Shown piece after piece: positions 1 through 64,000 of a stretch of DNA of 64,000 nucleotides (position 1 is the first letter of the stretch; every line of letters begins with the position of its first letter). Under the pieces are notes generated by a model. That model was not told where the DNA came from. It did not search any database and saw nothing but the letters and a program-made list of their open reading frames with translations. A program made the position numbers and the translations under genes. Origin of the DNA: Brachyhypopomus gauderio (Eukaryota; Chordata; Actinopteri; Gymnotiformes; Hypopomidae); contig NW_027506876.1 of assembly GCF_052324685.1 (NCBI RefSeq), forward strand, positions 124,001-188,000, read 5' to 3'.

Positions 1-124
1 ATGTTTTGTCTTAAAGCAAAGTAGACCTACTGCTTAGCCATTGTTGACATGATGACTTCCATGCTATGATAGAATGAGGAAACGCCCACGAGAGATGTGC
101 CCGTTCAGACAAGCAAGGTTTCTG

Positions 125-135
125 TAGTGTAGTGG
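125..135 (+). promoter_or_regulatory. Internal Pol III box A (representative)
   Basis: TAGTGTAGTGG fits the tRNA A-box consensus TRGYNNARNNG, at gene positions 8-18. It is preserved in nearly all 116 loci. Changed copies: G10T at 16976, 17485, 21457 and 21966; A9G at 4201 and 8288; G12A at 55853; G18A at 42063. Confidence 0.85.
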
Positions 136-168
136 TCATCACGTTCGCCTCACACGCAAAAGGTCCCT

Positions 169-179
169 GGTTCGATACC
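169..179 (+). promoter_or_regulatory. Internal Pol III box B (representative)
   Basis: GGTTCGATACC fits the B-box consensus GGTTCGANNCC, the TFIIIC site, at gene positions 52-62. Fifteen CAC copies carry G52A. Rarer changes are G57A, T54A, C56T and T59C, noted in individual entries. Confidence 0.85.
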
Positions 180-213
180 AGGCAGAAACATGCTTCTTGA
201 TAGAATGACAAAC

Positions 214-232
214 ACCACTGCTGTTTAGTGAT
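214..232 (+). other. Short hairpin 3' of tRNA (representative)
   Basis: About 24 nt after the tRNA end, ACCACT and AGTGGT can pair around a 7-nt loop GCTGTTT in most units. In this first unit the 3' arm reads AGTGAT, which weakens it. It lies in the probable 3' trailer; no known family is recognised. Confidence 0.35.
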
Positions 233-463
233 TTGTTGCCAGTGTAAAGGCTATCGGGGAGCGCTTGCCTTTAGATCCTCAAAGTGAGCTGTCAGTCTCA
301 TGTGATCGATACAGGAATGTTCTAAATCGCCATGTACCTTGATAGCAGTACTAATGCAGCCGGTTCAATCAAAATTACACTCCGTGGAAACTTACCTAGT
401 GCTTTGTCATGTTGTCTCCCAACGTAGAAAACTCATGCTACTCGGTTGATTTGTAGACGTTTG

Positions 464-475
464 TGTTATAAAGGT
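464..475 (+). promoter_or_regulatory. Conserved TATAAAG motif in spacer (representative)
   Basis: GTGTTATAAAGG is found in essentially every unit, including the tRNA-less 198-bp units. It lies about 160 bp upstream of the next tRNA, too far to be that gene's upstream TATA element. It could be a Pol II-type TATA box driving spacer transcription, or simply conserved repeat sequence. Function is inferred only. Confidence 0.25.
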
Positions 476-627
476 ATCGAATGATATCAACATTTGGTGT
501 TTGGATGTGAATGTTTTGTCTTAAAGCAGAGTAGACTTACTGCTTAGCCATTGTTGACATGATGACTTCCATGCTCTGATAGAATGAGGAAACGCCCACG
601 AGAGATGTGACCGTTCAGACAAGCAAG

Positions 628-700
628 GTTTCTGTAGTGTAGTGGTCATCACGTTTGCCTCACACCCGAAAGGTCCCTGGTTCGATACCAGGCAGAAACA
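628..700 (+). tRNA. tRNA-Val (CAC), locus 2
   Basis: Anticodon 661-663. C29T and G39C: pair 31-39 becomes C-C and 29-41 becomes U-G. Confidence 0.88.
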
Positions 701-1137
701 TGCTTCTTGATAGAATGACAAACACCACTGCTGTTTAGTGGTTTGTTGCCAGTGTAAAGGCTATCGGGGAGCGCTTGCCTTTAGATCCTCAAAGTGAGCT
801 GTCAGTCTCATGTGATCGATACAGGAATGTTCTAAATCGCCATGTACCTTGATAGCAGTACTAATGCAGCCGGTTCAATCAAAATTACACTCCGTGGAAA
901 CTTACCTAGTGCTTTGTCATGTTGTCTCCCAACATAGAAAACTCATGCTACTCGGTTGATTTGTAGACGTTTGTCTTATAAAGGTATCGAATGATGTCAA
1001 CATTTGGTGTTTCGATGTGAATGTTTTGTCTTAAAGCAGAGTAGACCTACTGCTTAACCATTGTTGACATGATGACTTCCATGCTCTGATAGAATGAGGA
1101 AACGCCCACGAGAGATGTGCCCGTTCAGACAAGCAAG

Positions 1138-1210
1138 GTTTCTGTAGTGTAGTGGTCATCACGTTCGCCTCACACGCAAAAGGTCCCTGGTTCGATACCA
1201 GGCAGAAACA
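1138..1210 (+). tRNA. tRNA-Val (CAC), locus 3
   Basis: Anticodon 1171-1173. G41A (C29-A41 mismatch). Confidence 0.9.
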
Positions 1211-1647
1211 TGCTTCTTGATAGAATGACAAAAACCACTGCTGTTTAGTGATTTGTTGCCAGTGTAAAGGCTATCGGGGAGCGCTTGCCTTTAGATCCTC
1301 AAAGTGAGCTGTCAGTCTCATGTGATCGATACAGGAATGTTCTAAATCGCCATGTACCTTGATAACAGTACTAATGCAGCCGGTTCAATCAAAATTACAC
1401 TCCGTGGAAACTTACCTAGTGCTTTGTCATGTTGTCTCCCAACATAGAAAACTCATGCTACTCGGTTGATTTGTAGACGTTTGTGTTATAAAGGTATCGA
1501 ATGATGTCAACATTTGGTGTTTGGATGTGAATGTTTTGTCTTAAAGCAGAGTAGACCTACTGCTTAGCCATTGTTGACATGATGACTTCCATGCTCTGAT
1601 AGAATGAGGAAACGCCCACGAGAGATGTGACCGTTCAGACAAGCAAG

Positions 1648-1720
1648 GTTTCTGTAGTGTAGTGGTCATCACGTTTGCCTCACACCCGAAAGGTCCCTGG
1701 TTCGATACCAGGCAGAAACA
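1648..1720 (+). tRNA. tRNA-Val (CAC), locus 4
   Basis: Anticodon 1681-1683. C29T, G39C. Confidence 0.88.
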
Positions 1721-2157
1721 TGCTTCTTGATAGAATGACAAACACCACTGCTGTTTAGTGGTTTGTTGCCAGTGTAAAGGCTATCGGGGAGCGCTTGCCT
1801 TTAGATCCTCAAAGTGAGCTGTCAGTCTCATGTGATCGATACAGGAATGTTCTAAATCGCCATGTACCTTGATAGCAGTACTAATGCAGCCGGTTCAATC
1901 AAAATTACACTTCGTGGAAACTTACCTAGTGCTTTGTCATGTTGTCTCCCAACATAGAAAACTCATGCTACTCGGTTGATTTGTAGACGTTTGTCTTATA
2001 AAGGTATCGAATGATGTCAACATTTGGTGTTTCGATGTGAATGTTTTGTCTTAAAGCAGAGTAGACCTACTGCTTAACCATTGTTGACATGATGACTTCC
2101 ATGCTCTGATAGAATGAGGAAACGCCCACGAGAGATGTGCCCGTTCAGACAAGCAAG

Positions 2158-2230
2158 GTTTCTGTAGTGTAGTGGTCATCACGTTCGCCTCACACGCAAA
2201 AGGTCCCTGGTTCGATACCAGGCAGAAACA
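2158..2230 (+). tRNA. tRNA-Val (CAC), locus 5
   Basis: Anticodon 2191-2193. G41A. Confidence 0.9.
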
Positions 2231-2667
2231 TGCTTCTTGATAGAATGACAAAAACCACTGCTGTTTAGTGATTTGTTGCCAGTGTAAAGGCTATCGGGGA
2301 GCGCTTGCCTTTAGATCCTCAAAGTGAGCTGTCAGTCTCATGTGATCGATACAGGAATGTTCTAAATCGCCATGTACCTTGATAACAGTACTAATGCAGC
2401 CGGTTCAATCAAAATTACACTCCATGGAAACTTACCTAGTGCTTTGTCATGTTGTCTCCCAACATAGAAAACTCATGCTACTCGGTTGATTTGTAGACGT
2501 TTGTGTTATAAAGGTATCGAATGATGTCAACATTTGGTGTTTGGATGTGAATGTTTTGTCTTAAAGCAGAGTAGACCTACTGCTTAGCCATTGTTGACAT
2601 GATGACTTCCATGCTCTGATAGAATGAGGAAACGCCCACGAGAGATGTGCCCATTCAGACAAGCAAG

Positions 2668-2740
2668 GTTTCTGTAGTGTAGTGGTCATCACGTTCGCCT
2701 AACACGCGAAAGGTCCCTGGTTCGATACCAGGCAGAAACA
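2668..2740 (+). tRNA. tRNA-Val (AAC), locus 6
   Basis: Anticodon 2701-2703. Identical to the reference body with all stems paired; A34 would be expected to become inosine. First AAC gene of the window, in a CAC-type flank (GAATGACATACACACC). Confidence 0.96.
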
Positions 2741-3178
2741 TGCTTCTTGATAGAATGACATACACACCACTGCTGTTTAGTGGTTGTTGCCAGTGTAAAG
2801 GCTATCAGCGAGCTCTTCCCTTTAGATCCTCAAAGTGAGCTGTCAGTCTCATGTGATCGATACAGGAATGTTCTAAATCGCCATGTACCTTGATAGCAGT
2901 ACTAATGCAGCCAGTTCAATCAAAATGAAACTCAGTGGAAACTTACCTAGTGCTTTGTCATGTTGTCTCCCAACATAGAAAACTCATGCTACTCGGTTGA
3001 TTTGTAGACGTTTGTGTTATAAAGGTATCGAATGATGTCAACATTTGGTGTTTGGATGTGAATGTTTTGTCTTAAAGCAGAGTAGACCTACTGCTTAGCC
3101 ATTGTTGACATGATGACTTCCATGCTCTGATTGTATGAGGAAACGCCCACGAGAGATGTGCCCATTCAGACATGCAAG

Positions 3179-3251
3179 GTTTCTGTAGTGTAGTGGTCAT
3201 CACGTTTGCCTCACACGCGAAAGGTCCCTAGTTCGATACCAGGCAGAAACA
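3179..3251 (+). tRNA. tRNA-Val (CAC), locus 7
   Basis: Anticodon 3212-3214. C29T (U-G pair) and G52A, which breaks T-stem pair 52-62 and the first base of box B. Confidence 0.86.
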
Positions 3252-3690
3252 TGCTTCTTGATAGAATGACATACACACCACTGCTGTTTAGTGGTTTGTT
3301 GCCAGTGTAAAGGCTATCGGCAAACTCTTCCCTTTAGATCCTCAAAGTGAGCTGTCAGTCTCATGTGATTGATACAGGAATGTTCTAAATCGCCATGTAC
3401 CTTGATAGCAGTACTAATGCAGCCAGTTCAATCAAAATGAAACTCAGTGGAAACTTACCTAGTGCTTTGTCATGTTGTCTCCCAACATAGAAAACTCATG
3501 CTACTCGGTTGATTTGTAGACGTTTGTGTTATAAAGGGATCGAATGATGTCAACATTTGGTGTTTGGATGTGAATGTTTTGTCTTAAAGCAAAGTAGACC
3601 TACTGCTTAGCCATTGTTGACATGATGACTTCCATGCTATGATAGAATGAGGAAACGCCCACGAGAGATGTGCCCGTTCAGACAAGCAAG

Positions 3691-3763
3691 GTTTCTGTAG
3701 TGTAGTGGTCATCACGTTCGCCTCACACGCAAAAGGTCCCTGGTTCGATACCAGGCAGAAACA
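3691..3763 (+). tRNA. tRNA-Val (CAC), locus 8
   Basis: Anticodon 3724-3726. G41A. Confidence 0.9.
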
Positions 3764-4200
3764 TGCTTCTTGATAGAATGACAAACACCACTGCTGTTTA
3801 GTGATTTGTTGCCAGTGTAAAGGCTATCGGGGAGCGCTTGCCTTTAGATCCTCAAAGTGAGCTGTCAGTCTCATGTGATCGATACAGGAATGTTCTAAAT
3901 CGCCATGTACCTTGATAGCAGTACTAATGCAGCCGGTTCAATCAAAATTACACTCCGTGGAAACTTACCTAGTGCTTTGTCATGTTGTCTCCCAACGTAG
4001 AAAACTCATGCTACTCGGTTGATTTGTAGACGTTTGTGTTATAAAGGGATCGAATGATGTCAACATTTGGTGTTTGGATGTGAATGTTTTGTCTTAAAGC
4101 AGAGTAGACCTACTGCTTAGCCATTGTTGACATCATGACTTCCATGCTCTGATTGTATGAGGAAACGCCTACGAGAGATGTGCCCGTTCAGACAAGCAAG

Positions 4201-4273
4201 GTTTCTGTGGTGTAGTGGTCATCACGTTTGCCTCACACCCGAAAGATCCCTGGTTCGATACCAGGCAGAAACA
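4201..4273 (+). tRNA. tRNA-Val (CAC), locus 9
   Basis: Anticodon 4234-4236. C29T, G39C, plus A9G and G46A, two tertiary-core positions. Confidence 0.85.
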
Positions 4274-4712
4274 TGCTTCTTGATAGAATGACATACACAC
4301 CACTGCTGTTTAGTGGTTTGTTGCCAGTGTAAAGGCTATCGGCGAGCTCTTCCCTTTAGATCCTCAAAGTGAGCTGTCAGTCTCATGTGATCGATACAGG
4401 AATGTTCTAAATCGCCATGTACCTTGATAGCAGTACTAATGCAGCCAGTTCAATCAAAATGAAACTCAGTGGAAACTTACCTAGTGCTTTGTCATGTTGT
4501 CTCCCAACATAGAAAACTCATGCTACTCGGTTGATTTGTAGACGTTTGTGTTATAAAGGTATCGAATGATGTCAACATTTGGTGTTTGGATGTGAATGTT
4601 TTGTCTTAAAGCAGAGTAGACCTACTGCTTAGCCATTGTTGACATGATGACTTCCATGCTCTGATTGTATGAGGAAACGCCCACGAGAGATGTGCCCATT
4701 CAGACATGCAAG

Positions 4713-4785
4713 GTTTCTGTAGTGTAGTGGTCATCACGTTCGCCTCACACGTGAAAGGTCCCTAGTTCGATACCAGGCAGAAACA
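4713..4785 (+). tRNA. tRNA-Val (CAC), locus 10
   Basis: Anticodon 4746-4748. C40T (G30-U40 wobble) and G52A. Confidence 0.86.
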
Positions 4786-5224
4786 TGCTTCTTGATAGAA
4801 TGACATACACACCACTGCTGTTTAGTGGTTTGTTGCCAGTGTAAAGGCTATCGGCGAACTCTTCCCTTTAGATCCTCAAAGTGAGCTGTCAGTCTCATGT
4901 GATCGATACAGGAATGTTCTAAATCGCCATGTACCTGGATAGCAGTACTAATGCAGCCAGTTCAATCAAAATGAAACTCAGTGGAAACTTACCTAGTGCT
5001 TTGTCATGTTGTCTCCCAACATAGAAAACTCATGCTACTCGGTTGATTTGTAGACGTTTGTGTTATAAAGGGATCGAATGATGTCAACATTTGGTGTTTG
5101 GATGTGAATGTTTTGTCTTAAAGCAGAGTAGACCTACTGCTTAGCCATTGTTGACATGATGACTTCCATGCTCTGATTGTATGAGGAAACGCCTACGAGA
5201 GATGTGCCCATTCAAACATGCAAG

Positions 5225-5297
5225 GTTTCTGTAGTGTAGTGGTCATCACGTTCTCCACACACGCGAAAGGTTCCTGGTTCGATACCAGGCAGAAACA
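5225..5297 (+). tRNA. tRNA-Val (CAC), locus 11, U33A
   Basis: Anticodon 5258-5260. Loop CACACAC: U33 replaced by A. Also G30T (mismatch with C40) and C48T. Likely non-functional in decoding. Confidence 0.75.
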
Positions 5298-5734
5298 TGC
5301 TTCTTGATAGAATGACAAACACCACTGCTGTTTAGTGGTTTGTTGCCAGTGTAAAGGCTATCGGGGAGCTCTTCCCTTTAGATCCTCAAAGTGAGCTCTC
5401 AGTCTCATGTGATCGATACAGGAATGTTCTAAATCGCCATGTACCTTGATAGCAGTACAAATGCAATCGGTTCAATCAAAATTACACTCCGTGGAAACTT
5501 ACCTAGTGCTTTGTCATGTTGTCTCCCAACATAGAAAACTCATGCTACTCGGTTGATTTGTAGACGTTTGTGTTATAAAGGTATCGAATGATGTCAACAT
5601 TTGGTGTTTGGATGTGAATGTTTTGTCTTAAAGCAGAGTAGACCTACTGCTTAGCCATTGTTGACATGATCACTTCCATGCTTTTATTGTATGAGGAAAT
5701 GCCCACGAGAGATGTGCCCATTCAGACAAGCAAG

Positions 5735-5807
5735 GTTTCTGTAGTGTAGTGGTCATCACGTTTGCCTCACACCCGAAAGGTCCCTGGTTCGATACCAGGC
5801 AGAAACA
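5735..5807 (+). tRNA. tRNA-Val (CAC), locus 12
   Basis: Anticodon 5768-5770. C29T, G39C. The 5' flank carries the GCTTTTATTG variant. Confidence 0.88.
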
Positions 5808-6244
5808 TGCTTCTTGATAGAATGACAAACACCACTGCTGTTTAGTGATTTGTTGCCAGTGTAAAGGCTATCGGGGAGCGCTTGCCTTTAGATCCTCAAA
5901 GTGAGCTGTCAGTCTCATGTGATCGATACAGGAATGTTCTAAATCGCCATGTACCTTGATAGCAGTACTAATGCAGCCAGTTCAATCAAAATGAAACTCA
6001 GTGGAAACTTACCTGGTGCTTTGTCATGTTGTCTCCCAACATAGAAAACTCATGCTACTCGGTTGATTTGTAGACGTTTGTGTTATAAAGGGATCGAATG
6101 ATGTCAACATTTGGTGTTTGGATGTGAATGTTTTGTCTTAAAGCAGAGTAGACCTACTGCTTAGCCATTGTTGACATGATGACTTCCATGCTCTGATAGA
6201 ATGAGGAAACGCCCACGAGAGATGTGCCCGTTCAGACAAGCAAG

Positions 6245-6317
6245 GTTTCTGTAGTGTAGTGGTCATCACGTTCGCCTCACACGCAAAAGGTCCCTGGTTC
6301 GATACCAGGCAGAAACA
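6245..6317 (+). tRNA. tRNA-Val (CAC), locus 13
   Basis: Anticodon 6278-6280. G41A. Confidence 0.9.
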
Positions 6318-6754
6318 TGCTTCTTGATAGAATGACAAACACCACTGCTGTTTAGTGATTTGTTGCCAGTGTAAAGGCTATCGGGGAGCGCTTGCCTTTA
6401 GATCCTCAAAGTGAGCTGTCAGTCTCATGTGATCGATACAGGAATGTTCTAAATCGCCATGTACCTTGATAACAGTACTAATGCAGCCGGTTCAATCAAA
6501 ATTACACTCCGTGGAAACTTACCTAGTGCTTTGTCATGTTGTCTCCCAACATAGAAAACTCATGCTACTCGGTTGATTTGTAGACGTTTGTGTTATAAAG
6601 GTATCGAATGATGTCAACATTTGGTGTTTGGATGTGAATGTTTTGTCTTAAAGCAGAGTAGACCTACTGCTTAGCCATTGTTGACATGATGACTTCCATG
6701 CTCTGATAGAATGAGGAAACGCCCACGAGAGATGTGCCCATTCAGACAAGCAAG

Positions 6755-6827
6755 GTTTCTGTAGTGTAGTGGTCATCACGTTCGCCTCACACGCGAAAGG
6801 TACCTGGTTCGATACCAGGCAGAAACA
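6755..6827 (+). tRNA. tRNA-Val (CAC), locus 14
   Basis: Anticodon 6788-6790. All stems paired; only C48A in the variable loop. One of three structurally sound CAC genes. Confidence 0.95.
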
Positions 6828-7265
6828 TGCTTCTTGATAGAATGACATACACACCACTGCTGTTTAGTGGTTGTTGCCAGTGTAAAGGCTATCGGCGAGC
6901 TCTTCCCTTTAGATCCTCAAAGTGAGCTGTCAGTCTCATGTGATCGATACAGGAATGTTCTAAATCGCCATGTACCTTGATAGCAGTACTAATGCAGCCA
7001 GTTCAATCAAAATGAAACTCAGTGGAAACTTACCTAGTGCTTTGTCATGTTGTCCCCCAACATAGAAAACTCATGCTACTCGGTTGATTTGTAGACGTTT
7101 GTGTTATAAAGGTATCGAATGATGTCAACATTTGGTGTTTGGATGTGAATGTTTTGTCTTAAAGCAGAGTAGACCTACTGCTTAGCCATTGTTGACATGA
7201 TGACTTCCATGCTCTGATTGTATGAGGAAACGCCCACGAGAGATGTGCCCATTCAGACATGCAAG

Positions 7266-7338
7266 GTTTCTGTAGTGTAGTGGTCATCACGTTCGCCTCA
7301 CACGCGAAAGGTCCCTAGTTCGATACCAGGCAGAAACA
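7266..7338 (+). tRNA. tRNA-Val (CAC), locus 15
   Basis: Anticodon 7299-7301. G52A (box B, T stem). Confidence 0.88.
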
Positions 7339-7777
7339 TGCTTCTTGATAGAATGACATACACACCACTGCTGTTTAGTGGTTTGTTGCCAGTGTAAAGG
7401 CTATCGGCGAACTCTTCCCTTTAGATCCTCAAAGTGAGCTGTCAGTCTCATGTGATTGATACAGGAATGTTCTAAATCGCCATGTACCTTGATAGCAGTA
7501 CTAATGCAGCCAGTTCAATCAAAATGAAACTCAGTGGAAACTTACCTAGTGCTTTGTCATGTTGTCTCCCAACATAGAAAACTCATGCTACTCGGTTGAT
7601 TTGTAGACGTTTGTGTTATAAAGGGATCGAATTATGTCAACATTTGGTGTTTGGATGTGAATGTTTTGTCTTAAAGCAGAGTAGACCTACTGCTTAGCCA
7701 TTGTTGACATGATGACTTCCATGCTATGATAGAATGAGGAAACGCCCACGAGAGATGTGCCCGTTCAGACAAGCAAG

Positions 7778-7850
7778 GTTTCTGTAGTGTAGTGGTCATC
7801 ACGTTCGCCTCACACGCAAAAGGTCCCTGGTTCGATACCAGGCAGAAACA
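7778..7850 (+). tRNA. tRNA-Val (CAC), locus 16
   Basis: Anticodon 7811-7813. G41A. Confidence 0.9.
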
Positions 7851-8287
7851 TGCTTCTTGATAGAATGACAAACACCACCGCTGTTTAGTGATTTGTTGCC
7901 AGTGTAAAGGCTATCGGGGAGCGCTTGCCTTTAGATCCTCAAAGTGAGCTGTCAGTCTCATGTGATCGATACAGGAATGTTCTAAATCGCCATGTACCTT
8001 GATAGCAGTACTAATGCAGCCGGTTCAATCAAAATTACACTCCGTGGAAACTTACCTAGTGCTTTGTCATGTTGTCTCCCAACGTAGAAAACTCATGCTA
8101 CTCGGTTGATTTGTAGACGTTTGTGTTATAAAGGGATCGAATGATGTCAACATTTGGTGTTTGGATGTGAATGTTTTGTCTTAAAGCAGAGTAGACCTAC
8201 TGCTTAGCCATTGTTGACATCATGACTTCCATGCTCTGATTGTATGAGGAAACGCCTACGAGAGATGTGCCCGTTCAGACAAGCAAG

Positions 8288-8360
8288 GTTTCTGTGGTGT
8301 AGTGGTCATCACGTTTGCCTCACACCCGAAAGATCCCTGGTTCGATACCAGGCAGAAACA
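8288..8360 (+). tRNA. tRNA-Val (CAC), locus 17
   Basis: Anticodon 8321-8323. C29T, G39C, A9G, G46A; twin of 4201. Confidence 0.85.
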
Positions 8361-8799
8361 TGCTTCTTGATAGAATGACATACACACCACTGCTGTTTAG
8401 TGGTTTGTTGCCAGTGTAAAGGCTATCGGCGAGCTCTTCCCTTTAGATCCTCAAAGTGAGCTGTCAGTCTCATGTGATCGATACAGGAATGTTCTAAATC
8501 GCCATGTACCTTGATAGCAGTACTAATGCAGCCAGTTCAATCAAAATGAAACTCAGTGGAAACTTACCTAGTGCTTTGTCATGTTGTCTCCCAACATAGA
8601 AAACTCATGCTACTCGGTTGATTTGTAGACGTTTGTGTTATAAAGGTATCGAATGATGTCAACATTTGGTGTTTGGATGTGAATGTTTTGTCTTAAAGCA
8701 GAGTAGACCTACTGCTTAGCCATTGTTGACATGATGACTTCCATGCTCTGATTGTATGAGGAAACGCCCACGAGAGATGTGCCCATTCAGACATGCAAG

Positions 8800-8872
8800 G
8801 TTTCTGTAGTGTAGTGGTCATCACGTTCGCCTCACACGTGAAAGGTCCCTAGTTCGATACCAGGCAGAAACA
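8800..8872 (+). tRNA. tRNA-Val (CAC), locus 18
   Basis: Anticodon 8833-8835. C40T and G52A; twin of 4713. Confidence 0.86.
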
Positions 8873-9311
8873 TGCTTCTTGATAGAATGACATACACACC
8901 ACTGCTGTTTAGTGGTTTGTTGCCAGTGTAAAGGCTATCGGCGAACTCTTCCCTTTAGATCCTCAAAGTGAGCTGTCAGTCTCATGTGATCGATACAGGA
9001 ATGTTCTAAATCGCCATGTACCTTGATAGCAGTACTAATGCAGCCAGTTCAATCAAAATGAAACTCAGTGGAAACTTACCTAGTGCTTTGTCATGTTGTC
9101 TCCCAACATAGAAAACTCATGCTACTCGGTTGATTTGTAGACGTTTGTGTTATAAAGGGATCGAATGATGTCAACATTTGGTGTTTGGATGTGAATGTTT
9201 TGTCTTAAAGCAGAGTAGACCTACTGCTTAGCCATTGTTGACATGATGACTTCCATGCTCTGATTGTATGAGGAAACGCCTACGAGAGATGTGCCCATTC
9301 AGACATGCAAG

Positions 9312-9384
9312 GTTTCTGTAGTGTAGTGGTCATCACGTTCGCCACACACGCGGAAGGTTCCTGGTTCGATACCAGGCAGAAACA
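9312..9384 (+). tRNA. tRNA-Val (CAC), locus 19, U33A
   Basis: Anticodon 9345-9347. U33A, A42G (U-G pair), C48T. Confidence 0.76.
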
Positions 9385-33585: not shown

Positions 33586-33688
33586 AGCAGAGTAGACCTA
33601 CTGCTTAGCCATTGTTGACATGATCACTTCCATGCTTTTATTTTATGAGGAAATGCCCACGAGAGATGTGCCCATTCAGACAAGCAAG

Positions 33689-54389: not shown

Positions 54390-54828
54390 TGCTTCTTGAT
54401 AGAATTACAAACACACCACTGCTGTTTAGTGGTTTGTTGCCCGTGTAAAGGCTATCGGGGAGCTCTTCCCTTTAGATCCTCAAAGTGAGCTCTCAGTCTC
54501 ATGTGATCGATACAGGAATGTTCTAAATCGCCATGTACCTTGAAAGCAGTACTAATGCAATCGGTTCAATCAAAATGAAACTCAGTGGAAACGTACCTAG
54601 TGCTTTGTCATGTTGTCTCCCAACGTAGAAAACTCATGCTACTCGGTTGATTTGTAGACGTTTGTGTTATAAAGGGATCGAATGATGTCAACATTTGGTG
54701 TTTGGATGTGAATGTTTTGTCTTAAAGCAGAGTAGACCTACTGCTTAGCCATTGTTGACATGATGACTTCCATGCTCTGATTGTATGAGGAAATGCCCAC
54801 GAAAGATGTGCCCATTCAGACAAGAAAG

Positions 54829-54901
54829 GTTTCTGTAGTGTAGTGGTCATCACGTTCGCCTTACACGCGAAAGGTCCCTGGTTCGATACCAGGCAGTATC
54901 A
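54829..54901 (+). tRNA. tRNA-Val (TAC), locus 100
   Basis: Anticodon TAC at 54862-54864. A69T, A71T. Confidence 0.83.
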
Positions 54902-55340
54902 TGCTTCTTAATAGAATTACAAACACACCACTGCTGTTTAGTGGTTTGTTGCTAGTGTAAAGGCTATCGGGGAGCTCTTCCCTTTAGATCCTCAAAGTGA
55001 GCTCTCAGTCTCATGTGATCGATACAGGAATGTTCTAAATCGACATGTACCTTGATAGCAGTACTAATGCAATCAGTTCAAACAAAATGAAACTCAGTGG
55101 AAACGTACCTAGTGCTTTGTCATGTTGTCTCCCAACGTAGAAAACTCATGCTACTCGGTTGATTTGTAGACGTTTGTGTTATAAAGGGATCGAATGATGT
55201 GAACATTTGGTGTTTGGATGTGAATGTTTTGTCTTAAAGCAGAGTAGACCTACTGCTTAGCCATTGTTGACATGATGACTTCCATGCTCTGATTGTATGA
55301 GGAAACGCCCACGAGAGATGTGCCCATTCAGGCAAGCAAG

Positions 55341-55413
55341 GTTTCTGTAGTGTAGTGGTCATCACGTTTGCCTAACACGCGAAAGGTCCCTGGTTCGATA
55401 CCAGGCAGAAACA
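55341..55413 (+). tRNA. tRNA-Val (AAC), locus 101
   Basis: Anticodon 55374-55376. C29T. Confidence 0.94.
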
Positions 55414-55852
55414 TGCTTCTTGATAGAATTACAAACACACCACTGCTGTTTAGTGGTTTGTTGCCAGTGTAAAGGCTATCGGGGAGCTCTTCCCTTTAGA
55501 TCCTCAAAGTGAGCTCTCAGTCTCATGTGATCGATACAGGAATGTTCTAAATCGCCATGTACCTTGATAGCAGTACTAATGCAATCAGTTCAAACAAAAT
55601 GAAACTCAGTGGAAACGTACCTAGTGCTTTGTCATGTTGTCTCCCAACGTAGAAAACTCATGCTACTCGGTTGATTTGTAGACGTTTGTGTTATAAAGGG
55701 ATCGAATGATGTGAACATTTGGTGTTTGGATGTGAATGTTTTGTCTTAAAGCAGAGTAGACCTACTGCTTAGCCATTGTTGACATGATGACTTCCATGCT
55801 CTGATTGTATGAGGAAACGCCCACGAGAGATGTGCCCGTTCAGACAAGCAAG

Positions 55853-55925
55853 GTTTCTGTAGTATAGTGGTCATCACGTTCGCCTTACACGCGAAAGGTC
55901 CCTGGTTCGATACCAGGCAGAAACA
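55853..55925 (+). tRNA. tRNA-Val (TAC), locus 102
   Basis: Anticodon TAC at 55886-55888. Acceptor stem intact; G12A breaks D-stem pair 12-23 and alters box A. Confidence 0.9.
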
Positions 55926-56249
55926 TGCTTCTTAATAGAATTACAAACACACCACTGCTGTTTAGTGGTTTGTTGCCAGTGTAAAGGCTATCGGGGAGCT
56001 CTTCCCTTTAGATCCTCAAAGTGAGCTCTCAGTCTCATGTGATCGATACAGGAATGTTCTAAATCGACATGTACCTTGATAGCAGTACTAATGCAATCAG
56101 TTCAAACAAAATTAAACTCAGTGGAAACGTACCTAGTGCTTTGTCATGTTGTCTCCCAACGTAGAAAACTCATGCTACTCGGTTGATTTGTAGACGTTTG
56201 TGTTATAAAGGGATCGAATGATGTCAACATTTGGTGTTTGGATGTGAAT

Positions 56250-56447
56250 GTTTTGTCTTAAAGCAGAGTAGACCTACTGCTTAGCCAGTGTTGATTGGTT
56301 CAATCAAAATGAAACTCAGTGGAAACGTACCTAGTGCTTTGTCATGTTGTCTCCCAACGTAGAAAACTCATGCTACTCGGTTGATTTGTAGACGTTTGTG
56401 TTATAAAGGGATCGAATGATGTCAACATTTGGTGTTTGGATGTGAAT
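56250..56447 (+). repeat. 198-bp unit lacking tRNA (11)
   Basis: TTGATTGG junction; counterpart of 53492. Confidence 0.92.
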
Positions 56448-56562
56448 ATTTTGTCTTAAAGCAGAGTAGACCTACTGCTTAGCCATTGTTGACATGATGA
56501 CTTCCATGCTCTGATTGTATGAGGAAACGCCCACGAGAGATGTGCCCATTCAGACAAGCAAG

Positions 56563-56635
56563 GTTTCTGTAGTGTAGTGGTCATCACGTTCGCCTAACAT
56601 GCGAAAGGTCCCTGGTTCGATACCAGGCAGAAACA
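56563..56635 (+). tRNA. tRNA-Val (AAC), locus 103
   Basis: Anticodon 56596-56598. C38T; +2758 twin of 53805. Confidence 0.92.
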
Positions 56636-57074
56636 TACTTCTTGATAGAATTACAAACACACCACTGCTGTTTAGTGGTTTGTTGCCAGTGTAAAGGCTA
56701 TCGGGGAGCTCTTCCCTTTAGATCCTCAAAGTGAGCTCTCAGTCTCATGTGATCGATACAGGAATGTTCTAAATCGCCATGTACTTTGATAGCAGTACTA
56801 ATGCAATCAGTTCAAACAAAATGAAACTCAGTGGAAACGTACCTAGTGCTTTGTCATGTTGTCTCCCAACGTAGAAAACTCATGCTACTCGGTTGATTTG
56901 TAGACGTTTGTGTTATAAAGGGATCGAATGATGTGAACATTTGGTGTTTGGATGTGAATGTTTTGTCTTAAAGCAGAGTAGACCTACTGCTTAGCCATTG
57001 TTGACATGATGACTTCCATGCTCTGATTGTATGAGGAAACGCCCACGAGAGATGTGCCCGTTCAGACAAGCAAG

Positions 57075-57147
57075 GTTTCTGTAGTGTAGTGGTCATCACG
57101 TTCGCCTTACACGCGAAAGGTCCCTGGTTCGATACCAGGTAGAAACA
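57075..57147 (+). tRNA. tRNA-Val (TAC), locus 104
   Basis: Anticodon TAC at 57108-57110. C66T (G7-U66 wobble); otherwise intact. Confidence 0.92.
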
Positions 57148-57586
57148 TGCTTCTTAATAGAATTACAAACACACCACTGCTGTTTAGTGGTTTGTTGCCA
57201 GTGTAAAGGCTATCGGGGAGCTCTTCCCTTTAGATCCTCAAAGTGAGCTCTCAGTCTCATGTGATCGATACAGGAATGTTCTAAATCGACATGTACCTTG
57301 ATAGCAGTACTAATGCAATCAGTTCAAACAAAATGAAACTCAGTGGAAACGTACCTAGTGCTTTGTCATGTTGTCTCCCAACGTAGAAAACTCATGCTAC
57401 TCGGTTGATTTGTAGATGTTTGTGTTATAAAGGGATCGAATGATATCAACATTTGGTGTTTGGATGTGAATGTTTTGTCTTAAAGCAGAGTAGACCTACT
57501 GCTTAGCCATTGTTGACATGATGACTTTCATGCTCTGATTGTATGAGGAAACGTCCACGAGAGATGTGCCCATTCAGACAAGCAAG

Positions 57587-57659
57587 GTTTCTGTAGTGTA
57601 GTGGTCATCACGTTCGTCTAACACGCGAAAGGTCCCTGGTTTGACACCAGGCAGAAACA
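57587..57659 (+). tRNA. tRNA-Val (AAC), locus 105
   Basis: Anticodon 57620-57622. C31T, T59C and C56T, the last removing the invariant T-loop C and changing box B. Confidence 0.84.
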
Positions 57660-58098
57660 TGCTTCTTGATAGAATTACAAACACACCACTGCTGTTTAGT
57701 GGTTTGTTGCCAGTGTAAAGGCTATCGGGGAGCTCTTCCCTTTAGATCCTCAAAGTGAGCTCTCAGTCTCATGTGATCGATACAGGAATGTTCTAAATCG
57801 ACATGTACCTTGATAGCAGTACTAATGCAATCAGTTCAAACAAAATGAAACTCAGTGGAAACGTACCTAGTGCTTTGTCATGTTGTCTCCCAACGTAGAA
57901 AACTCATGCTACTCGGTTGATTTGTAGACGTTTGTGTTATAAAGGGATCGAATGATATCAACATTTGGTGTTTGGATGTGAATGTTTTGTCTTAAAGCAG
58001 AGTAGACCTACTGCTTAGCCATTGTTGACATGATGACTTTCATGCTCTGATTGTATGAGGAAACGCCCACGAGAGATGTGCCCATTCAGACAAGCAAG

Positions 58099-58169
58099 GT
58101 TTATAGTGTAGTGGTCATCACGTTCGTCTAACACCCAAAAGGTCCCTGGTTCGACACCAGGCAGAAACA
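58099..58169 (+). pseudogene. tRNA-Val (AAC) pseudogene, locus 106
   Basis: 71 nt. The 5' acceptor strand reads GTTTATA: C5A plus loss of two bases, so the stem cannot close fully. Also C31T, G39C, G41A and T59C, which ruin the anticodon stem. Anticodon AAC at 58130-58132. Confidence 0.85.
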
Positions 58170-58608
58170 TGCTTCTTGATAGAATTACAAACACACCACT
58201 GCTGTTTAGTGGTTTGTTGCCAGTGTAAAGGCTATCGGGGAGCTCTTCCCTTTAGATCCTCAAAGTGAGCTCTCAGTCTCATGTGATCGATACAGGAATG
58301 TTCTAAATCGACATGTACCTTGATAGCAGTACTAATGCAATCAGTTCAAACAAAATGAAACTCAGTGGAAACGTACCTAGTGCTTTGTCATGTTGTCTCC
58401 CAACGTAGAAAACTCATGCTCCTCGGTTGATTTGTAGACGTTTGTGTTATAAAGGGATCGAATGATGTCAACATTTGGTGTTTGGATGTGAATGTTTTGT
58501 CTTAAAGCAGAGTAGACCTACTGCTTAGCCATTGTTGACATGATGACTTCCATGCTCTGCTTGTATGAGGAAACGCCCACGAGAGATGTGCCCATTCAGA
58601 CAGTCAAG

Positions 58609-58681
58609 GTTTCTGTAGTGTAGTGGTCATCACGTTCGCCTAACATGCGAAAGGTCCCTGGTTCGATACCAGGCAGAAACA
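58609..58681 (+). tRNA. tRNA-Val (AAC), locus 107
   Basis: Anticodon 58642-58644. C38T. TTTT 43 nt downstream. Confidence 0.92.
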
Positions 58682-59120
58682 TGCTTCTTGATAGAATTAC
58701 AAACGCACCACTGCTGTTTAGTGTTTTGTTGCCAGTGTAAAGGCTATCGGGGAGCTCTTCCCTTTAGATCCTCAAAGTGAGCTCTCAGTCTCATGTGATC
58801 GATACAGGAATGTTCTAAATCGACATGTACCTTGATAGCAGTACTAATGCAATCAGTTCAAACAAAATGAAACTCAGTGGAAACGTACCTAGTGCTTTGT
58901 CATGTTGTCTCCCAACGTAGAAAACTCATGCTACTCGGTTGATTTGTAGACGTTTGTGTTATAAAGGGATCGAATGATATCAACATTTGGTGTTTGGATG
59001 TGAATGTTTTGTCTTAAAGCAGAGTAGACCTACTGCTTAGCCATTGTTGACATGATGACTTTCATGCTCTGATTGTATGAGGAAACGCCCACGAGAGATG
59101 TGCCCATTCAGACAAGCAAG

Positions 59121-59193
59121 GTTTCTGTAGTGTAGTGGTCATCACGTTCGTCTAACACGCGAAAGGTCCCTGGTTCGACACCAGGCAGAAACA
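59121..59193 (+). tRNA. tRNA-Val (AAC), locus 108
   Basis: Anticodon 59154-59156. C31T, T59C. Confidence 0.92.
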
Positions 59194-59632
59194 TGCTTCT
59201 TGATAGAATTACAAACACACCACTGCTGTTTAGTGGTTTGTTGCCAGTGTAAAGGCTATCGGGGAGCTCTTCCCTTTAGATCCTCAAAGTGAGCTCTCAG
59301 TCTCATGTGATCGATACAGGAATGTTCTAAATCGACATGTACCTTGATAGCAGTACTAATGCAATCAGTTCAAACAAAATGAAACTCAGTGGAAACGTAC
59401 CTAGTGCTTTGTCATGTTGTCTCCCAACGTAGAAAACTCATGCTCCTCGGTTGATTTGTAGACGTTTGTGTTATAAAGGGATCGAATGATGTCAACATTT
59501 GGTGTTTGGATGTGAATGTTTTGTCTTAAAGCAGAGTAGACCTACTGCTTAGCCATTGTTGACATGATGACTTCCATGCTCTGCTTGTATGAGGAAACGC
59601 CCACGAGAGATGTGCCCATTCAGACAGTCAAG

Positions 59633-59705
59633 GTTTCTGTAGTGTAGTGGTCATCACGTTCGCCTAACATGCGAAAGGTCCCTGGTTCGATACCAGGCAG
59701 AAACA
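59633..59705 (+). tRNA. tRNA-Val (AAC), locus 109
   Basis: Anticodon 59666-59668. C38T. TTTT 43 nt downstream. Confidence 0.92.
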
Positions 59706-60029
59706 TGCTTCTTGATAGAATTACAAACGCACCACTGCTGTTTAGTGTTTTGTTGCCAGTGTAAAGGCTATCGGGGAGCTCTTCCCTTTAGATCCTCAAA
59801 GTGAGCTCTCAGTCTCATGTGATCGATACAGGAATGTTCTAAATCGCCATGTACCTTGATAGCAGTACTAATGCAATCGGTTCAATCAAAATGAAACTCA
59901 GTGAAAACGTACCTAGTGCTTTGTCATGTTGTCTCCCAACGTAGAAAACTCATGCTACTTGGTTGATTTGTAGACGTTTGTGTTATAAAGGGATCAAATG
60001 ATGTCAACATTTGGTGTTTGGATGTGAAT

Positions 60030-60227
60030 GTTTTGTCTTAAAGCAGAGTAGACCTACTGCTTAGCCAGTGTTGATTGGTTCAATCAAAATGAAACTCAGT
60101 GGAAACGTACCTAGTGCTTTGTCATGTTGTCTCCCAACGTAGAAAGCTCATGCTACTCGGTTGATTTGTAGACGTTTGTGTTATAAAGGGATCGAATGAT
60201 GTCAACATTTGGTGTTTGGATGTGAAT
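60030..60227 (+). repeat. 198-bp unit lacking tRNA (12)
   Basis: TTGATTGG junction; carries AGAAAGCTC. Confidence 0.92.
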
Positions 60228-60342
60228 GTTTTGTCTTAAAGCAGAGTAGACCTACTGCTTAGCCATTGTTGACATGATGACTTCCATGCTCTGATTGTAT
60301 GAGGAAACGCCCACAAGAGATGTGCCCATTCAGACAAGCAAG

Positions 60343-60415
60343 GTTTCTGTAGTGTAGTGGTCATCACGTTCACCTTACACGCGAAAGGTCCCTGGTTCGA
60401 TACCAGGCAGAAACA
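60343..60415 (+). tRNA. tRNA-Val (TAC), locus 110
   Basis: Anticodon TAC at 60376-60378. G30A (A30-C40 mismatch); acceptor intact. Confidence 0.89.
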
Positions 60416-60854
60416 TGCTTCTTAATAGAATTACAAACACACCACTGCTGTTTAGTGGTTTGTTGCCAGTGTAAAGGCTATCGGGGAGCTCTTCCCTTTA
60501 GATCCTCAAAGTGAGCTCTCAGTCTCATGTGATCGATACAGGAATGTTCTAAATCGACATGTACCTTGATAGCAGTACTAATGCAATCAGTTCAAACAAA
60601 ATGAAACTCAGTGGAAACGTACCTAGTGCTTTGTCATGTTGTCTCCCAACGTAGAAAACTCATGCTACTCGGTTGATTTGTAGACGTTTGTGTTATAAAG
60701 GGATCGAATGATATCAACATTTGGTGTTTGGATGTGAATGTTTTGTCTTAAAGCAGAGTAGACCTACTGCTTAGCCATTGTTGACATGATGACTTTCATG
60801 CTCTGATTGTATGAGGAAACGCCCACGAGAGATGTGCCCATTCAGACAAGCAAG

Positions 60855-60927
60855 GTTTCTGTAGTGTAGTGGTCATCACGTTCGTCTAACACGCGAAAGG
60901 TCCCTGGTTCGACACCAGGCAGAAACA
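60855..60927 (+). tRNA. tRNA-Val (AAC), locus 111
   Basis: Anticodon 60888-60890. C31T, T59C. Confidence 0.92.
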
Positions 60928-61366
60928 TGCTTCTTGATAGAATTACAAACACACCACTGCTGTTTAGTGGTTTGTTGCCAGTGTAAAGGCTATCGGGGAG
61001 CTCTTCCCTTTAGATCCTCAAAGTGAGCTCTCAGTCTCATGTGATCGATACAGGAATGTTCTAAATCGACATGTACCTTGATAGCAGTACTAATGCAATC
61101 AGTTCAAACAAAATGAAACTCAGTGGAAACGTACCTAGTGCTTTGTCATGTTGTCTCCCAACGTAGAAAACTCATGCTCCTCGGTTGATTTGTAGACGTT
61201 TGTGTTATAAAGGGATCGAATGATGTCAACATTTGGTGTTTGGATGTGAATGTTTTGTCTTAAAGCAGAGTAGACCTACTGCTTAGCCATTGTTGACATG
61301 ATGACTTCCATGCTCTGCTTGTATGAGGAAACGCCCACGAGAGATGTGCCCATTCAGACAGTCAAG

Positions 61367-61439
61367 GTTTCTGTAGTGTAGTGGTCATCACGTTCGCCTA
61401 ACATGCGAAAGGTCCCTGGTTCGATACCAGGCAGAAACA
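61367..61439 (+). tRNA. tRNA-Val (AAC), locus 112
   Basis: Anticodon 61400-61402. C38T. TTTT 43 nt downstream. Confidence 0.92.
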
Positions 61440-61763
61440 TGCTTCTTGATAGAATTACAAACGCACCACTGCTGTTTAGTGTTTTGTTGCCAGTGTAAAG
61501 GCTATCGGGGAGCTCTTCCCTTTAGATCCTCAAAGTGAGCTCTCAGTCTCATGTGATCGATACAGGAATGTTCTAAATCGCCATGTACCTTGATAGCAGT
61601 ACTAATGCAATCGGTTCAATCAAAATGAAACTCAGTGAAAACGTACCTAGTGCTTTGTCATGTTGTCTCCCAACGTAGAAAACTCATGCTACTTGGTTGA
61701 TTTGTAGACGTTTGTGTTATAAAGGGATCAAATGATGTCAACATTTGGTGTTTGGATGTGAAT

Positions 61764-61961
61764 GTTTTGTCTTAAAGCAGAGTAGACCTACTGCTTAGCC
61801 AGTGTTGATTGGTTCAATCAAAATGAAACTCAGTGGAAACGTACCTAGTGCTTTGTCATGTTGTCTCCCAACGTAGAAAGCTCATGCTACTCGGTTGATT
61901 TGTAGACGTTTGTGTTATAAAGGGATCGAATGATATCAACATTTGGTGTTTGGATGTGAAT
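61764..61961 (+). repeat. 198-bp unit lacking tRNA (13)
   Basis: TTGATTGG junction; carries AGAAAGCTC, +1734 counterpart of 60030. Confidence 0.92.
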
Positions 61962-62076
61962 GTTTTGTCTTAAAGCAGAGTAGACCTACTGCTTAGTTAT
62001 TGTTGACATGATGACTTTCATGCTCTGATTGTATGAGGAAACGCCCACGAGAGATGTGCCCATTCAGACAAGCAAG

Positions 62077-62149
62077 GTTTATGTAGTGTAGTGGTCATCA
62101 CGTTCGTCTAACACGCGAAAGGTCCCTGGTTCGACACCAGGCAGAAACA
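62077..62149 (+). tRNA. tRNA-Val (AAC), locus 113
   Basis: Anticodon 62110-62112. C5A (A5-G68 acceptor mismatch), C31T, T59C. Intermediate toward the 71-nt pseudogenes. Confidence 0.86.
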
Positions 62150-62588
62150 TGCTTCTTGATAGAATTACAAACACACCACTGCTGTTTAGTGGTTTGTTGC
62201 CAGTGTAAAGGCTATCGGGGAGCTCTTCCCTTTAGATCCTCAAAGTGAGCTCTCAGTCTCATGTGATCGATACAGGAATGTTCTAAATCGACATGTACCT
62301 TGATAGCAGTACTAATGCAATCAGTTCAAACAAAATGAAACTCAGTGGAAACGTACGTAGTGCTTTGTCATGTTGTCTCCCAACGTAGAAAACTCATGCT
62401 ACTCGGTTGATTTGTAGACGTTTGTGTTATAAAGGGATCGAATGATATCAACATTTGGTGTTTGGATGTGAATGTTTTGTCTTAAAGCAGAGTAGACCTA
62501 CTGCTTAGCCATTGTTGACATGATGACTTTCATGCTCTGATTGTATGAGGAAACGCCCACGAGAGATGTGCCCATTCAGACAAGCAAG

Positions 62589-62659
62589 GTTTATAGTGTA
62601 GTGGTCATCACGTTCGTCTAACACGCGAAAGGTCCCTGGTTCGACACCAGGCAGAAACA
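62589..62659 (+). pseudogene. tRNA-Val (AAC) pseudogene, locus 114
   Basis: 71 nt with the same GTTTATA acceptor lesion as 58099. C31T and T59C present, but the anticodon stem is otherwise intact. Anticodon 62620-62622. Confidence 0.85.
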
Positions 62660-63098
62660 TGCTTCTTGATAGAATTACAAACACACCACTGCTGTTTAGT
62701 GGTTTGTTGCCAGTGTAAAGGCTATCGGGGAGCTCTTCCCTTTAGATCCTCAAAGTGAGCTCTCAGTCTCATGTGATCGATACAGGAATGTTCTAAATCG
62801 CCATGTACCTTGATAGCAGTACTAATGCAATCAGTTCAAACAAAATGAAACTCAGTGGAAACGTACCTAGTGCTTTGTCATGTTGTCTCCCAACGTAGAA
62901 AACTCATGCTCCTCGGTTGATTTGTAGACGTTTGTGTTATAAAGGGATCGAATGATGTCAACATTTGGTGTTTGGATGTGAATGTTTTGTCTTAAAGCAG
63001 AGTAGACCTACTGCTTAGCCATTGTTGACATGATGACTTCCATGCTCTGATTGTATGAGGAAACGCCCACAAGAGATGTGCCCATTCAGACAAGCAAG

Positions 63099-63171
63099 GT
63101 TTCTGTAGTGTAGTGGTCATCACGTTCGCCTTACACGCGAAAGGTCCCTGGTTCGATACCAGGCAGAAACA
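63099..63171 (+). tRNA. tRNA-Val (TAC), locus 115
   Basis: Anticodon TAC at 63132-63134. Reference body with no other change: the cleanest TAC gene here. Confidence 0.96.
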
Positions 63172-63610
63172 TGCTTCCTAATAGAATTACAAACACACCA
63201 CTGCTGTTTAGTGGTTTGTTGCCAGTGTAAAGGCTATCGGGGAGCTCTTCCCTTTAGATCCTCAAAGTGAGCTCTCAGTCTCATGTGATCGATACAGGAA
63301 TGTTCTAAATCGACATGTACCTTGATAGCAGTACTAATGCAATCAGTTCAAACAAAATGAAACTCAGTGGAAACGTACCTAGTGCTTTGTCATGTTGTCT
63401 CCCAACGTAGAAAACTCATGCTACTCGGTTGATTTGTAGACGTTTGTGTTATAAAGGGATCGAATGATATCAACATTTGGTGTTTGGATGTGAATGTTTT
63501 GTCTTAAAGCAGAGTAGACCTACTGCTTAGCCATTGTTGACATGATGACTTTCATGCTCTGATTGTATGAGGAAACGCCCACGAGAGATGTGCCCATTCA
63601 GACAAGCAAG

Positions 63611-63683
63611 GTTTATGTAGTGTAGTGGTCATCACGTTCGTCTAACACGCGAAAGGTCCCTGGTTCGACACCAGGCAGAAACA
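63611..63683 (+). tRNA. tRNA-Val (AAC), locus 116
   Basis: Anticodon 63644-63646. C5A, C31T, T59C; like 62077. Last tRNA in the window. Confidence 0.86.
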
Positions 63684-64000
63684 TGCTTCTTGATAGAATT
63701 ACAAACACACCACTGCTGTTTAGTGGTTTGTTGCCAGTGTAAAGGCTATCGGGGAGCTCTTCCCTTTAGATCCTCAAAGTGAGCTCTCAGTCTCATGTGA
63801 TCGATACAGGAATGTTCTAAATCGACATGTACCTTGATAGCAGTACTAATGCAATCAGTTCAAACAAAATGAAACTCAGTGGAAACGTACGTAGTGCTTT
63901 GTCATGTTGTCTCCCAACGTAGAAAACTCATGCTACTCGGTTGATTTGTAGACGTTTGTGTTATAAAGGGATCGAATGATATCAACATTTGGTGTTTGGA

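What the first reader, a model, noticed from the sequence alone, without database searches (positions are those of the whole stretch)
1..64000. A valine-only tRNA megasatellite with at least 116 loci in 64 kb
A single amino-acid tRNA family is repeated head-to-tail on one strand about every 510 bp across the whole window, and the array continues past both ends. Large tandem tRNA arrays are known in some vertebrates, notably fish, but one window holding all three valine isoacceptor anticodons on one body is striking. It could be a translation-related dosage locus or a satellite that carries Pol III promoters for chromatin or propagation reasons.
Basis: partly seen in the sequence, partly recalled or inferred. 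Interest (0 to 1): 0.8.

Follow-up and report, generated by a model that had tools for sequence, protein, structure and literature searches.

The report
Decaying megabase array of valine tRNAs
A fish-like animal genome carries a very long head-to-tail array of a valine transfer-RNA gene whose copies seem to have become freely mutating satellite DNA, while a small older cluster elsewhere keeps well-preserved versions of the same gene.

Summary
The window holds 116 tRNA-Val-like copies on the + strand (ARAGORN 115; Rfam 108). They belong to an array from C32:1 to 521-530 kb that apparently continues on contig C96 for 411-450 kb. C32 is zoned: TAC-rich, then CAC-rich, then AAC.

Against a dosage locus:
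- disruptive changes among distinct tRNA-body substitutions equal random expectation (44 of 81; 44.1 +/- 2.5);
- 45 of 116 window copies have an intact cloverleaf, CAC 3 of 56;
- in the window the tRNA varies more than its spacer;
- 440 of 478 copies lack TTTT within 60 nt, unlike five dispersed Val genes.

A small C36 cluster is the contrast: its spacers differ by 18-26% from the array units compared, yet five of its nine tRNA copies read have exactly the array's consensus body, with CAC, AAC or TAC, and eight of eight full units have a nearby TTTT.

Best reading: a working three-isoacceptor valine cluster was amplified into a terminator-poor satellite that now drifts. An egg-stage tRNA bank remains possible.

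The parts
1..64000 (+). Part of a head-to-tail tRNA-Val array, G000:C32:124001-188000; 116 tRNA-like copies, unit about 510/512 bp
118..41500 (+). CAC-rich zone with AAC copies mixed in and multi-unit repeats; 53 of the window's 56 CAC copies carry a cloverleaf lesion (such as A52-C62, C31-C39 or C29-A41 mismatch, or loss of U33)
41551..63683 (+). AAC-rich zone with TAC copies and more variants seen once
15954..24915 (+). Two adjacent 4,481-bp blocks (15954-20434 and 20435-24915), 4,465 of 4,481 positions identical: a recent multi-unit duplication
31455..33585 (.). Inserted DNA element at a TTAA target, ends CCCTT...AAGGG, piggyBac-like by its ends (name recalled), with CA-rich and 12-bp internal repeats
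18237..18633 (+). Example of two 198-bp spacer pieces in tandem, which make a 710-bp unit
48801..48873 (+). Copy with anticodon AAA (ARAGORN: Phe) on the valine body
62587..62659 (+). Copy with a different 5' acceptor end; a similar one starts at 58097

Best explanation
The window is part of a megabase-scale satellite whose unit was born from a valine tRNA gene plus about 440 bp of flank. An older cluster of the kind still present on contig C36, with CAC, AAC and TAC genes on one body and TTTT close behind them, is the type of source. One unit type was amplified, mainly by unequal exchange and block duplication, into about 0.95 Mb spread over C32 and C96. The array lacks the TTTT found at the matching place in C36, and its tRNA copies now gain disruptive mutations at the neutral rate. 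The anticodon zones arise because local blocks that happen to carry one anticodon are duplicated. Valine tRNA is probably supplied by the dispersed canonical genes and the well-preserved C36 genes. Shown: array extent in the sampled stretches, zoning, block duplication, neutral pattern of variants, terminator difference, conservation in C36. Inferred: direction of the terminator change, the C96-C32 join, the amplification mechanism, and the lack of a major contribution to the tRNA pool.
For: Neutral pattern: 478 array copies give 81 distinct body substitutions, 44 disruptive against 44.1 +/- 2.5 expected with mutation type matched, and no departure in any of four frequency classes. In the window 36 of 73 tRNA sites vary against 117 of 439 spacer sites (Fisher p 1.7e-4). 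C36 shows the opposite: 8 of 73 against 160 of 442 in eight units (p 6e-6). Lesions shared by many copies: C31-C39 in 49, C29-A41 in 40, A52-C62 in 37 of 478; U33 lost in 41. No TTTT within 60 nt in 440 of 478. GCTGTTTA in 467 of 478 array copies where 5 of 6 C36 units printed read GCTGTTTT; 8 of 8 full C36 units have TTTT by nt 35, and 5 of 5 dispersed genes within 18 nt (read off). CpG transitions are 263 of 677 body differences, from 5 CpG sites, as expected of DNA methylated in the germline. Neighbours share an anticodon in 271 of 403 pairs against 148 +/- 9 shuffled. Near-identical 4,481-bp blocks. Spacer divergence rises with distance, 2.6% to 4.3%.
Against: 209 of 478 copies have intact cloverleaves and 107 of 478 an unchanged body, so the array still holds many plausible genes. 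Of 20 C96 copies 14 are intact, so decay is weaker there than in the window. Selection could act on the array as a whole and be invisible per copy. Pol III can use weaker terminators (recalled). In the left part of the window tRNA sites outside the anticodon arm vary a little less than the spacer (0.161 against 0.219 segregating sites per base). No RNA or chromatin data were available. C36 is not clean either: of nine tRNA copies read, three carry changes at scored pairs or conserved positions and one is truncated (read off). Some genes of another array also lack a close TTTT (Lys on C71, at 56 or 120 nt).
Confidence: 0.64

Rival explanations
1. A maternal (oocyte) tRNA bank: the array is silent in the body but transcribed in oocytes, as high-copy tRNA clusters appear to be in zebrafish, and supplies valine tRNA to the egg. 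Selection acts on the number of good copies, not on each one.
For: In zebrafish, isodecoders of eggs and early embryos are encoded in multi-copy repetitive regions and late ones in scattered genes (PMC11417395, passages). [quoted passage not shown] Here too the array body differs from the canonical body of the dispersed C4 gene at six sites besides the anticodon, four of them two paired changes. 209 of 478 copies are intact. The genome has other tRNA arrays.
Against: Neutral pattern of variants; TTTT missing within 60 nt in 440 of 478 although the Leu, Glu and Ile genes seen in other arrays here have it within 10 nt; amplification of lesioned copies; CpG decay.
Confidence: 0.23
2. A chromatin element: the copies are kept because A and B boxes recruit TFIIIC or Pol III machinery, giving a boundary or heterochromatin domain, whatever the tRNA product.
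For: A/B-box sequence is still unchanged in many copies (variant counts per position). The least variable spacer stretch (unit 385-432) holds the TTTT that is the first one for most copies, and an imperfect palindrome (palindrome read by eye).
Against: The internal promoter region is not spared: G52A in 37 and C56T in 16 of 478 copies. The low-variation stretch is not significant (permutation P = 0.13).
Confidence: 0.09
3. Assembly artefact: repeat units multiplied or joined wrongly.
For: Both contigs begin inside the array, a typical assembly break.
Against: Unit-specific variants and zoned anticodons, single insertions with their own target duplications, no N in the stretches checked.
Confidence: 0.04

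Closest known systems
High-copy clustered tRNA genes of teleosts, best known in zebrafish (PMC2888827 and PMC11417395, passages read)
   Same: Very high copy number, parallel orientation, clusters in repetitive DNA, isodecoder body different from scattered genes.
   Different: Zebrafish neighbours are mostly of different amino acids (PMC2888827 passage). Here one amino acid runs through all sampled stretches of an apparent 0.95 Mb, zoned by anticodon, mostly without nearby TTTT, and with a neutral pattern of decay.
[quoted passage not shown]
   Same: A tRNA-Val array in a fish is already mentioned in print.
   Different: Described there as containing snRNA genes too; the passage gives no size, anticodons or decay. 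Rfam finds no snRNA in this window at gathering score.
Oocyte-specific tandem tRNA genes of Xenopus (commentary PMC11500080, passages read)
   Same: Tandem tRNA repeats in a vertebrate.
   Different: Those are reported active around zygotic genome activation; activity here is unknown and the sequence argues against strong activity.
Arabidopsis tRNA Ser/Tyr (SYY) cluster (PMC12308677, abstract and outline read)
   Same: Tandem tRNA genes reaching into heterochromatin and silent in most tissues.
   Different: Two amino acids, and shown to be reactivated in root tips.
Entamoeba tRNA gene arrays (PMC2652664, search listing with start of abstract only)
   Same: tRNA genes in tandem array units.
   Different: Units with up to five tRNA genes and short tandem repeats between genes; they hold almost all tRNA genes of that organism.

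Membership tests
Teleost-type high-copy tRNA gene cluster | Many tRNA genes close together, mostly in parallel | tested here: met
   116 of 116 window copies on the + strand; + strand in the array-bearing C32 stretches sampled
Teleost-type high-copy tRNA gene cluster | Clustered isodecoder differs from scattered genes of the same isotype | tested here: met
   Five dispersed Val genes found on C1, C4, C16 (two) and C19 carry another body
Teleost-type high-copy tRNA gene cluster | Mixed amino acids among neighbours, as in zebrafish | tested here: not met
   115 of 116 window copies have a Val anticodon, one AAA; paper passage
Maternal (oocyte) tRNA gene array | Transcripts present in eggs | not testable with these tools
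   No RNA data for this organism
Maternal (oocyte) tRNA gene array | Genes able to end Pol III transcription close to the gene (feature chosen by me as a proxy for working genes) | tested here: inconclusive
   TTTT within 60 nt in 38 of 478 copies; weaker terminators not testable
Satellite DNA | Head-to-tail repeats with higher-order blocks and local homogenisation | tested here: met
Satellite DNA | Sequence evolves without constraint on a product | tested here: met
   44 of 81 disruptive against 44.1 +/- 2.5 expected; constraint on the array as a whole not testable
tRNA-derived SINE | Dispersed copies with target duplications and a 3' tail | tested here: not met
   Exact TAC pattern: 246 matches; of the 100 places listed, 62 are on C32, 37 on C96 and 1 on C36, the last in a tandem cluster
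Entamoeba-type tRNA array | Several different tRNA genes per unit | tested here: not met
   One tRNA per unit in the window

The most novel reading that the evidence does not exclude
The array is a germline-active Pol III domain of a new kind: having no close terminator, its promoters drive roughly 400-nt RNAs, each headed by a tRNA and ending at the shared TTTT about 322-325 nt downstream, so the array makes a tRNA-headed long RNA (or chromatin state) rather than, or besides, valine tRNA, in zones of three anticodons.
Probability: 0.08. Interest if true: 0.8.

Novelty: new variant of a known kind. Interest (0 to 1): 0.52.

Why it matters
It seems to catch a tRNA gene family turning into a satellite inside one genome. 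The same tRNA body is preserved in a small older cluster and decaying in a very large array, with a terminator difference at the matching site. That makes a general question testable: whether the very large tRNA arrays of fish genomes are working supply or repeat DNA that gene finders count as genes. It also warns against reading copy number as dosage: this window alone adds 115 ARAGORN gene calls, while 45 of its 116 copies have an intact cloverleaf by my scoring and 6 of 116 have TTTT within 60 nt.

Tried and rejected
Second RNA gene in the spacer: cmscan of window 63100-64000 at E up to 10 gave the two tRNAs and five weak matches below their gathering scores; rejected.

Special conservation of the spacer stretch at unit 385-432: lowest variation, but permutation P = 0.13; not claimed.

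A canonical dispersed Val-TAC gene: the human-like TAC body gave 7 matches, all at 84-86%, of which five are the dispersed AAC/CAC genes and two lie on C96, and three patterns gave 0 matches. Not exhaustive. The array-type TAC gene on C36 may be the well-preserved one; not claimed as proven.

Selection shown by invariant nt 35 and 36: 0 and 1 variant copies of 478, but 26 of 73 sites have one or none, so this is not evidence.

Sampling other arrays without choosing by score: of three stretches only the C71 one gave tRNA calls (where ARAGORN ran with an intron option; its 'Asp' calls there are unreliable, since earlier C71 loci read Leu at that spacing). The terminator comparison with other arrays therefore rests on few loci, eight of them picked by score.

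Literature: nine searches. By titles and abstract starts none listed describes a single-amino-acid tRNA array of this size; [quoted passage not shown] Only openly licensed PMC papers are held, so this is weak evidence of absence. PMC4833346 was looked at in passages and gave nothing on arrays. (Pol III termination) was a listing only.

Organism: not named by any tool. 'Fish-like' is inferred from the 796.5-Mb size, the vertebrate-like tRNA bodies (human sequence recalled) and the other tRNA arrays. Not tested further.

First lesion scoring used wrong D-loop numbering and marked all 482 copies lesioned; redone. Four of the 482 copies, with more than 12 differences, were dropped there: two share an internal deletion (C32:37758, 38764), one is split by an insertion (C32:36736), one was not looked at (C32:80639). 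Dropping broken copies raises the intact share, against my reading. The list of conserved tRNA positions used is recalled.

A first unit search by regex found only 16 copies through a fault of its search order; one search replaces it.

Odds left as they were.
Full report
1. The observation. The window is G000:C32:124001-188000 of a 796.5-Mb assembly in 840 contigs. It holds 116 copies of a 73-base tRNA-Val-like sequence on the + strand and none on the - strand at up to 30 mismatches from the reference body. ARAGORN reports 115 genes, Rfam 108 at gathering score. Anticodons: CAC 56, AAC 50, TAC 9, AAA 1. Of 115 unit lengths, 61 are 512, 33 are 510, 6 are 509, 2 are 511, 12 are 710 and 1 is 708 bp, after taking a 2.1-kb inserted element out of one unit. 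The 710-bp units carry a second copy of a 198-bp spacer piece. The insert, 31455-33585, sits at a TTAA target with CCCTT...AAGGG ends.

2. How far it goes. Of 20 ten-kb stretches sampled between C32:1 and 348,000, 19 are array on the + strand, with 7,082 to 10,000 bases of each covered by the unit; one (278,001-288,000) has only 247 bases. Of the 33 short stretches of 0.3-2 kb that followed on C32, the ones from 270,001 to 521,000 hold array except at 290,001 and 470,001; those at 530,001, 540,001, 550,001 and 560,001 and the 13 from 620,001 to the contig end do not (29 stretches in these two calls). A 37-base spacer core has 1,096 forward and 831 reverse matches genome-wide and none for the reversed control; of the 100 places listed, 99 are on C32 and one, the only reverse one, is on C96. 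Of 12 C96 samples, 10 between position 1 and 411,200 are array in the opposite orientation; those at 450,001 and 500,001 hold three tRNA-Ile genes (anticodon TAT, TTTT at +4), apparently another tandem array. Both contigs begin inside the array, in orientations that would make one continuous head-to-tail array; the join is inferred. Total length is then about 0.93-0.98 Mb. Core matches overcount units, because the 198-bp pieces carry further cores.

3. Anticodon zones. On C32 the first 45 kb are mostly TAC, then CAC prevails to about 160 kb, then AAC; the short samples farther on are AAC only. C96 mixes: 17 CAC and 3 TAC in 20 sampled copies, and the exact TAC pattern has 183 reverse matches, of which the 37 listed are on C96, and 63 forward, 62 on C32 and 1 on C36. 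In 404 copies of the two long C32 stretches, 271 of 403 neighbours share the anticodon against 148 +/- 9 after shuffling. On a tree of 349 spacers (units of 505-513 bp only) the anticodon changes 26 times against 143 for shuffled labels, and 61% of spacers are identical to another one. In the window, two adjacent 4,481-bp blocks agree at 4,465 positions. Block duplication explains the zones; no selection on the anticodon needs to be assumed.

4. Are the tRNAs maintained? I scored cloverleaf pairs and conserved positions (list recalled) in 478 array copies, 458 from C32 and 20 from C96, after dropping four of 482 that were strongly altered. 209 are intact: AAC 142 of 192, CAC 34 of 205, TAC 32 of 79, AAA 1 of 1, GAC 0 of 1; in the window 45 of 116 (AAC 39 of 50, CAC 3 of 56, TAC 2 of 9, AAA 1 of 1); on C96 14 of 20. 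Among 81 distinct substitutions outside the anticodon, 44 are disruptive; 5,000 random draws matched for mutation type give 44.1 +/- 2.5. By my arithmetic, removal of about a quarter of disruptive changes would have shifted this by about two standard deviations. In the window 36 of 73 tRNA sites vary against 117 of 439 spacer sites, p = 1.7e-4 in the direction opposite to conservation; in the left part alone, leaving out the anticodon arm, the tRNA is slightly less variable than the spacer. CpG transitions are 263 of 677 body differences. A hAT-like element (name recalled) sits in the anticodon loop of one copy with an 8-base duplication, and a tRNA with an internal deletion occurs twice nearby (L012).

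5. Terminators. The first TTTT lies 201-330 nt downstream in 383 of 462 copies with enough flank, 61-200 nt in 41 and within 60 nt in 38. The five dispersed Val genes have TTTT within 18 nt (read off). The Leu and Glu genes seen in the C71 array have it at 5 and 10 nt, its Lys genes at 56 or 120, and the three Ile genes on C96 at 4.

6. The contrast cluster. Seven Val genes match a pattern with the canonical T20 exactly: four AAC and one CAC dispersed, and two C96 array copies. No canonical TAC gene was found. One TAC copy with the array body lies on C36. It belongs to an older cluster: 18 copies of its terminator sequence, all listed, span C36:791,741-801,123. I read 797,001-803,000. Nine tRNA-like copies are there: five have a body identical to the array consensus apart from nt 34 (three CAC, one AAC, one TAC), one has one further change (in the acceptor stem), two have 4 and 6 changes, one is truncated. 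Spacers of the three unit types are 73-78% identical to each other, and the six C36 units compared are 74-82% identical to five array units. The eight full units have TTTT by nt 35. Variable sites in these eight are 8 of 73 in the tRNA and 160 of 442 in the spacer (p = 6e-6). So this body has been held constant over a long time, by selection or by conversion limited to the gene, and the array is where that ends. At the matching place 467 of 478 array copies read GCTGTTTA where 5 of 6 C36 units printed read GCTGTTTT. That T4 is ancestral is inferred from its presence in C36 and the dispersed genes.

7. Interpretation. A satellite derived from a valine tRNA gene fits the whole set best. A maternal tRNA bank is the main rival, because zebrafish eggs contain tRNAs encoded in such clusters (PMC11417395, passages), and it cannot be excluded without RNA data. 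Compared with what is known, large teleost tRNA clusters are established (PMC2888827, passages) and a zebrafish tRNA-Val/snRNA array is mentioned (PMC3706591, passages); a single-amino-acid, anticodon-zoned, mostly terminator-less one beside a small preserved cluster is a new variant.

8. Limits. About 298 kb of this genome outside the window could be read. C96 was sampled at 13 points, 12 of them. The copies tested are mostly from C32:1-238,000. C96 copies look healthier than those of the window, so decay may be uneven along the array.

Noticed in passing
C96:450001-451200 and 500001-501200 (L072, L073): Intron-containing tRNA-Ile (TAT) genes with TTTT at +4, apparently a tandem array, lie beyond the valine array.
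   Followed up: partly
C71, L002-L008 and L075: A tandem unit of about 971 bp holds Leu (TAG), Glu (CTC, opposite strand) and, in part of the units, Lys (TTT) tRNA genes; Leu and Glu have close terminators, Lys not.
   Followed up: partly
L012:4284-6768 (C32, about 34.3-36.8 kb): A hAT-like element with 8-base target duplication CCTCACAC is inserted in the anticodon loop of one tRNA copy.
   Followed up: no
window:31455-33585: PiggyBac-like element at TTAA with long CA-rich and ATTGTTCTGGGC repeats inside.
   Followed up: no
window:48801-48873: Valine body with a phenylalanine anticodon AAA and an otherwise intact cloverleaf.
   Followed up: no
C36:797405-799459 (L080, L078): In the older cluster an intact CAC gene and a lesioned AAC copy alternate as a dimer of about 1,027 bp.
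   Followed up: partly
G000:C7:24156421-24287056: The Rfam search lists many high-scoring tRNAs, often 1,219 bp apart, on the - strand: another tRNA array, not identified; one 5-kb stretch taken from a gap in it gave no tRNA.
   Followed up: no
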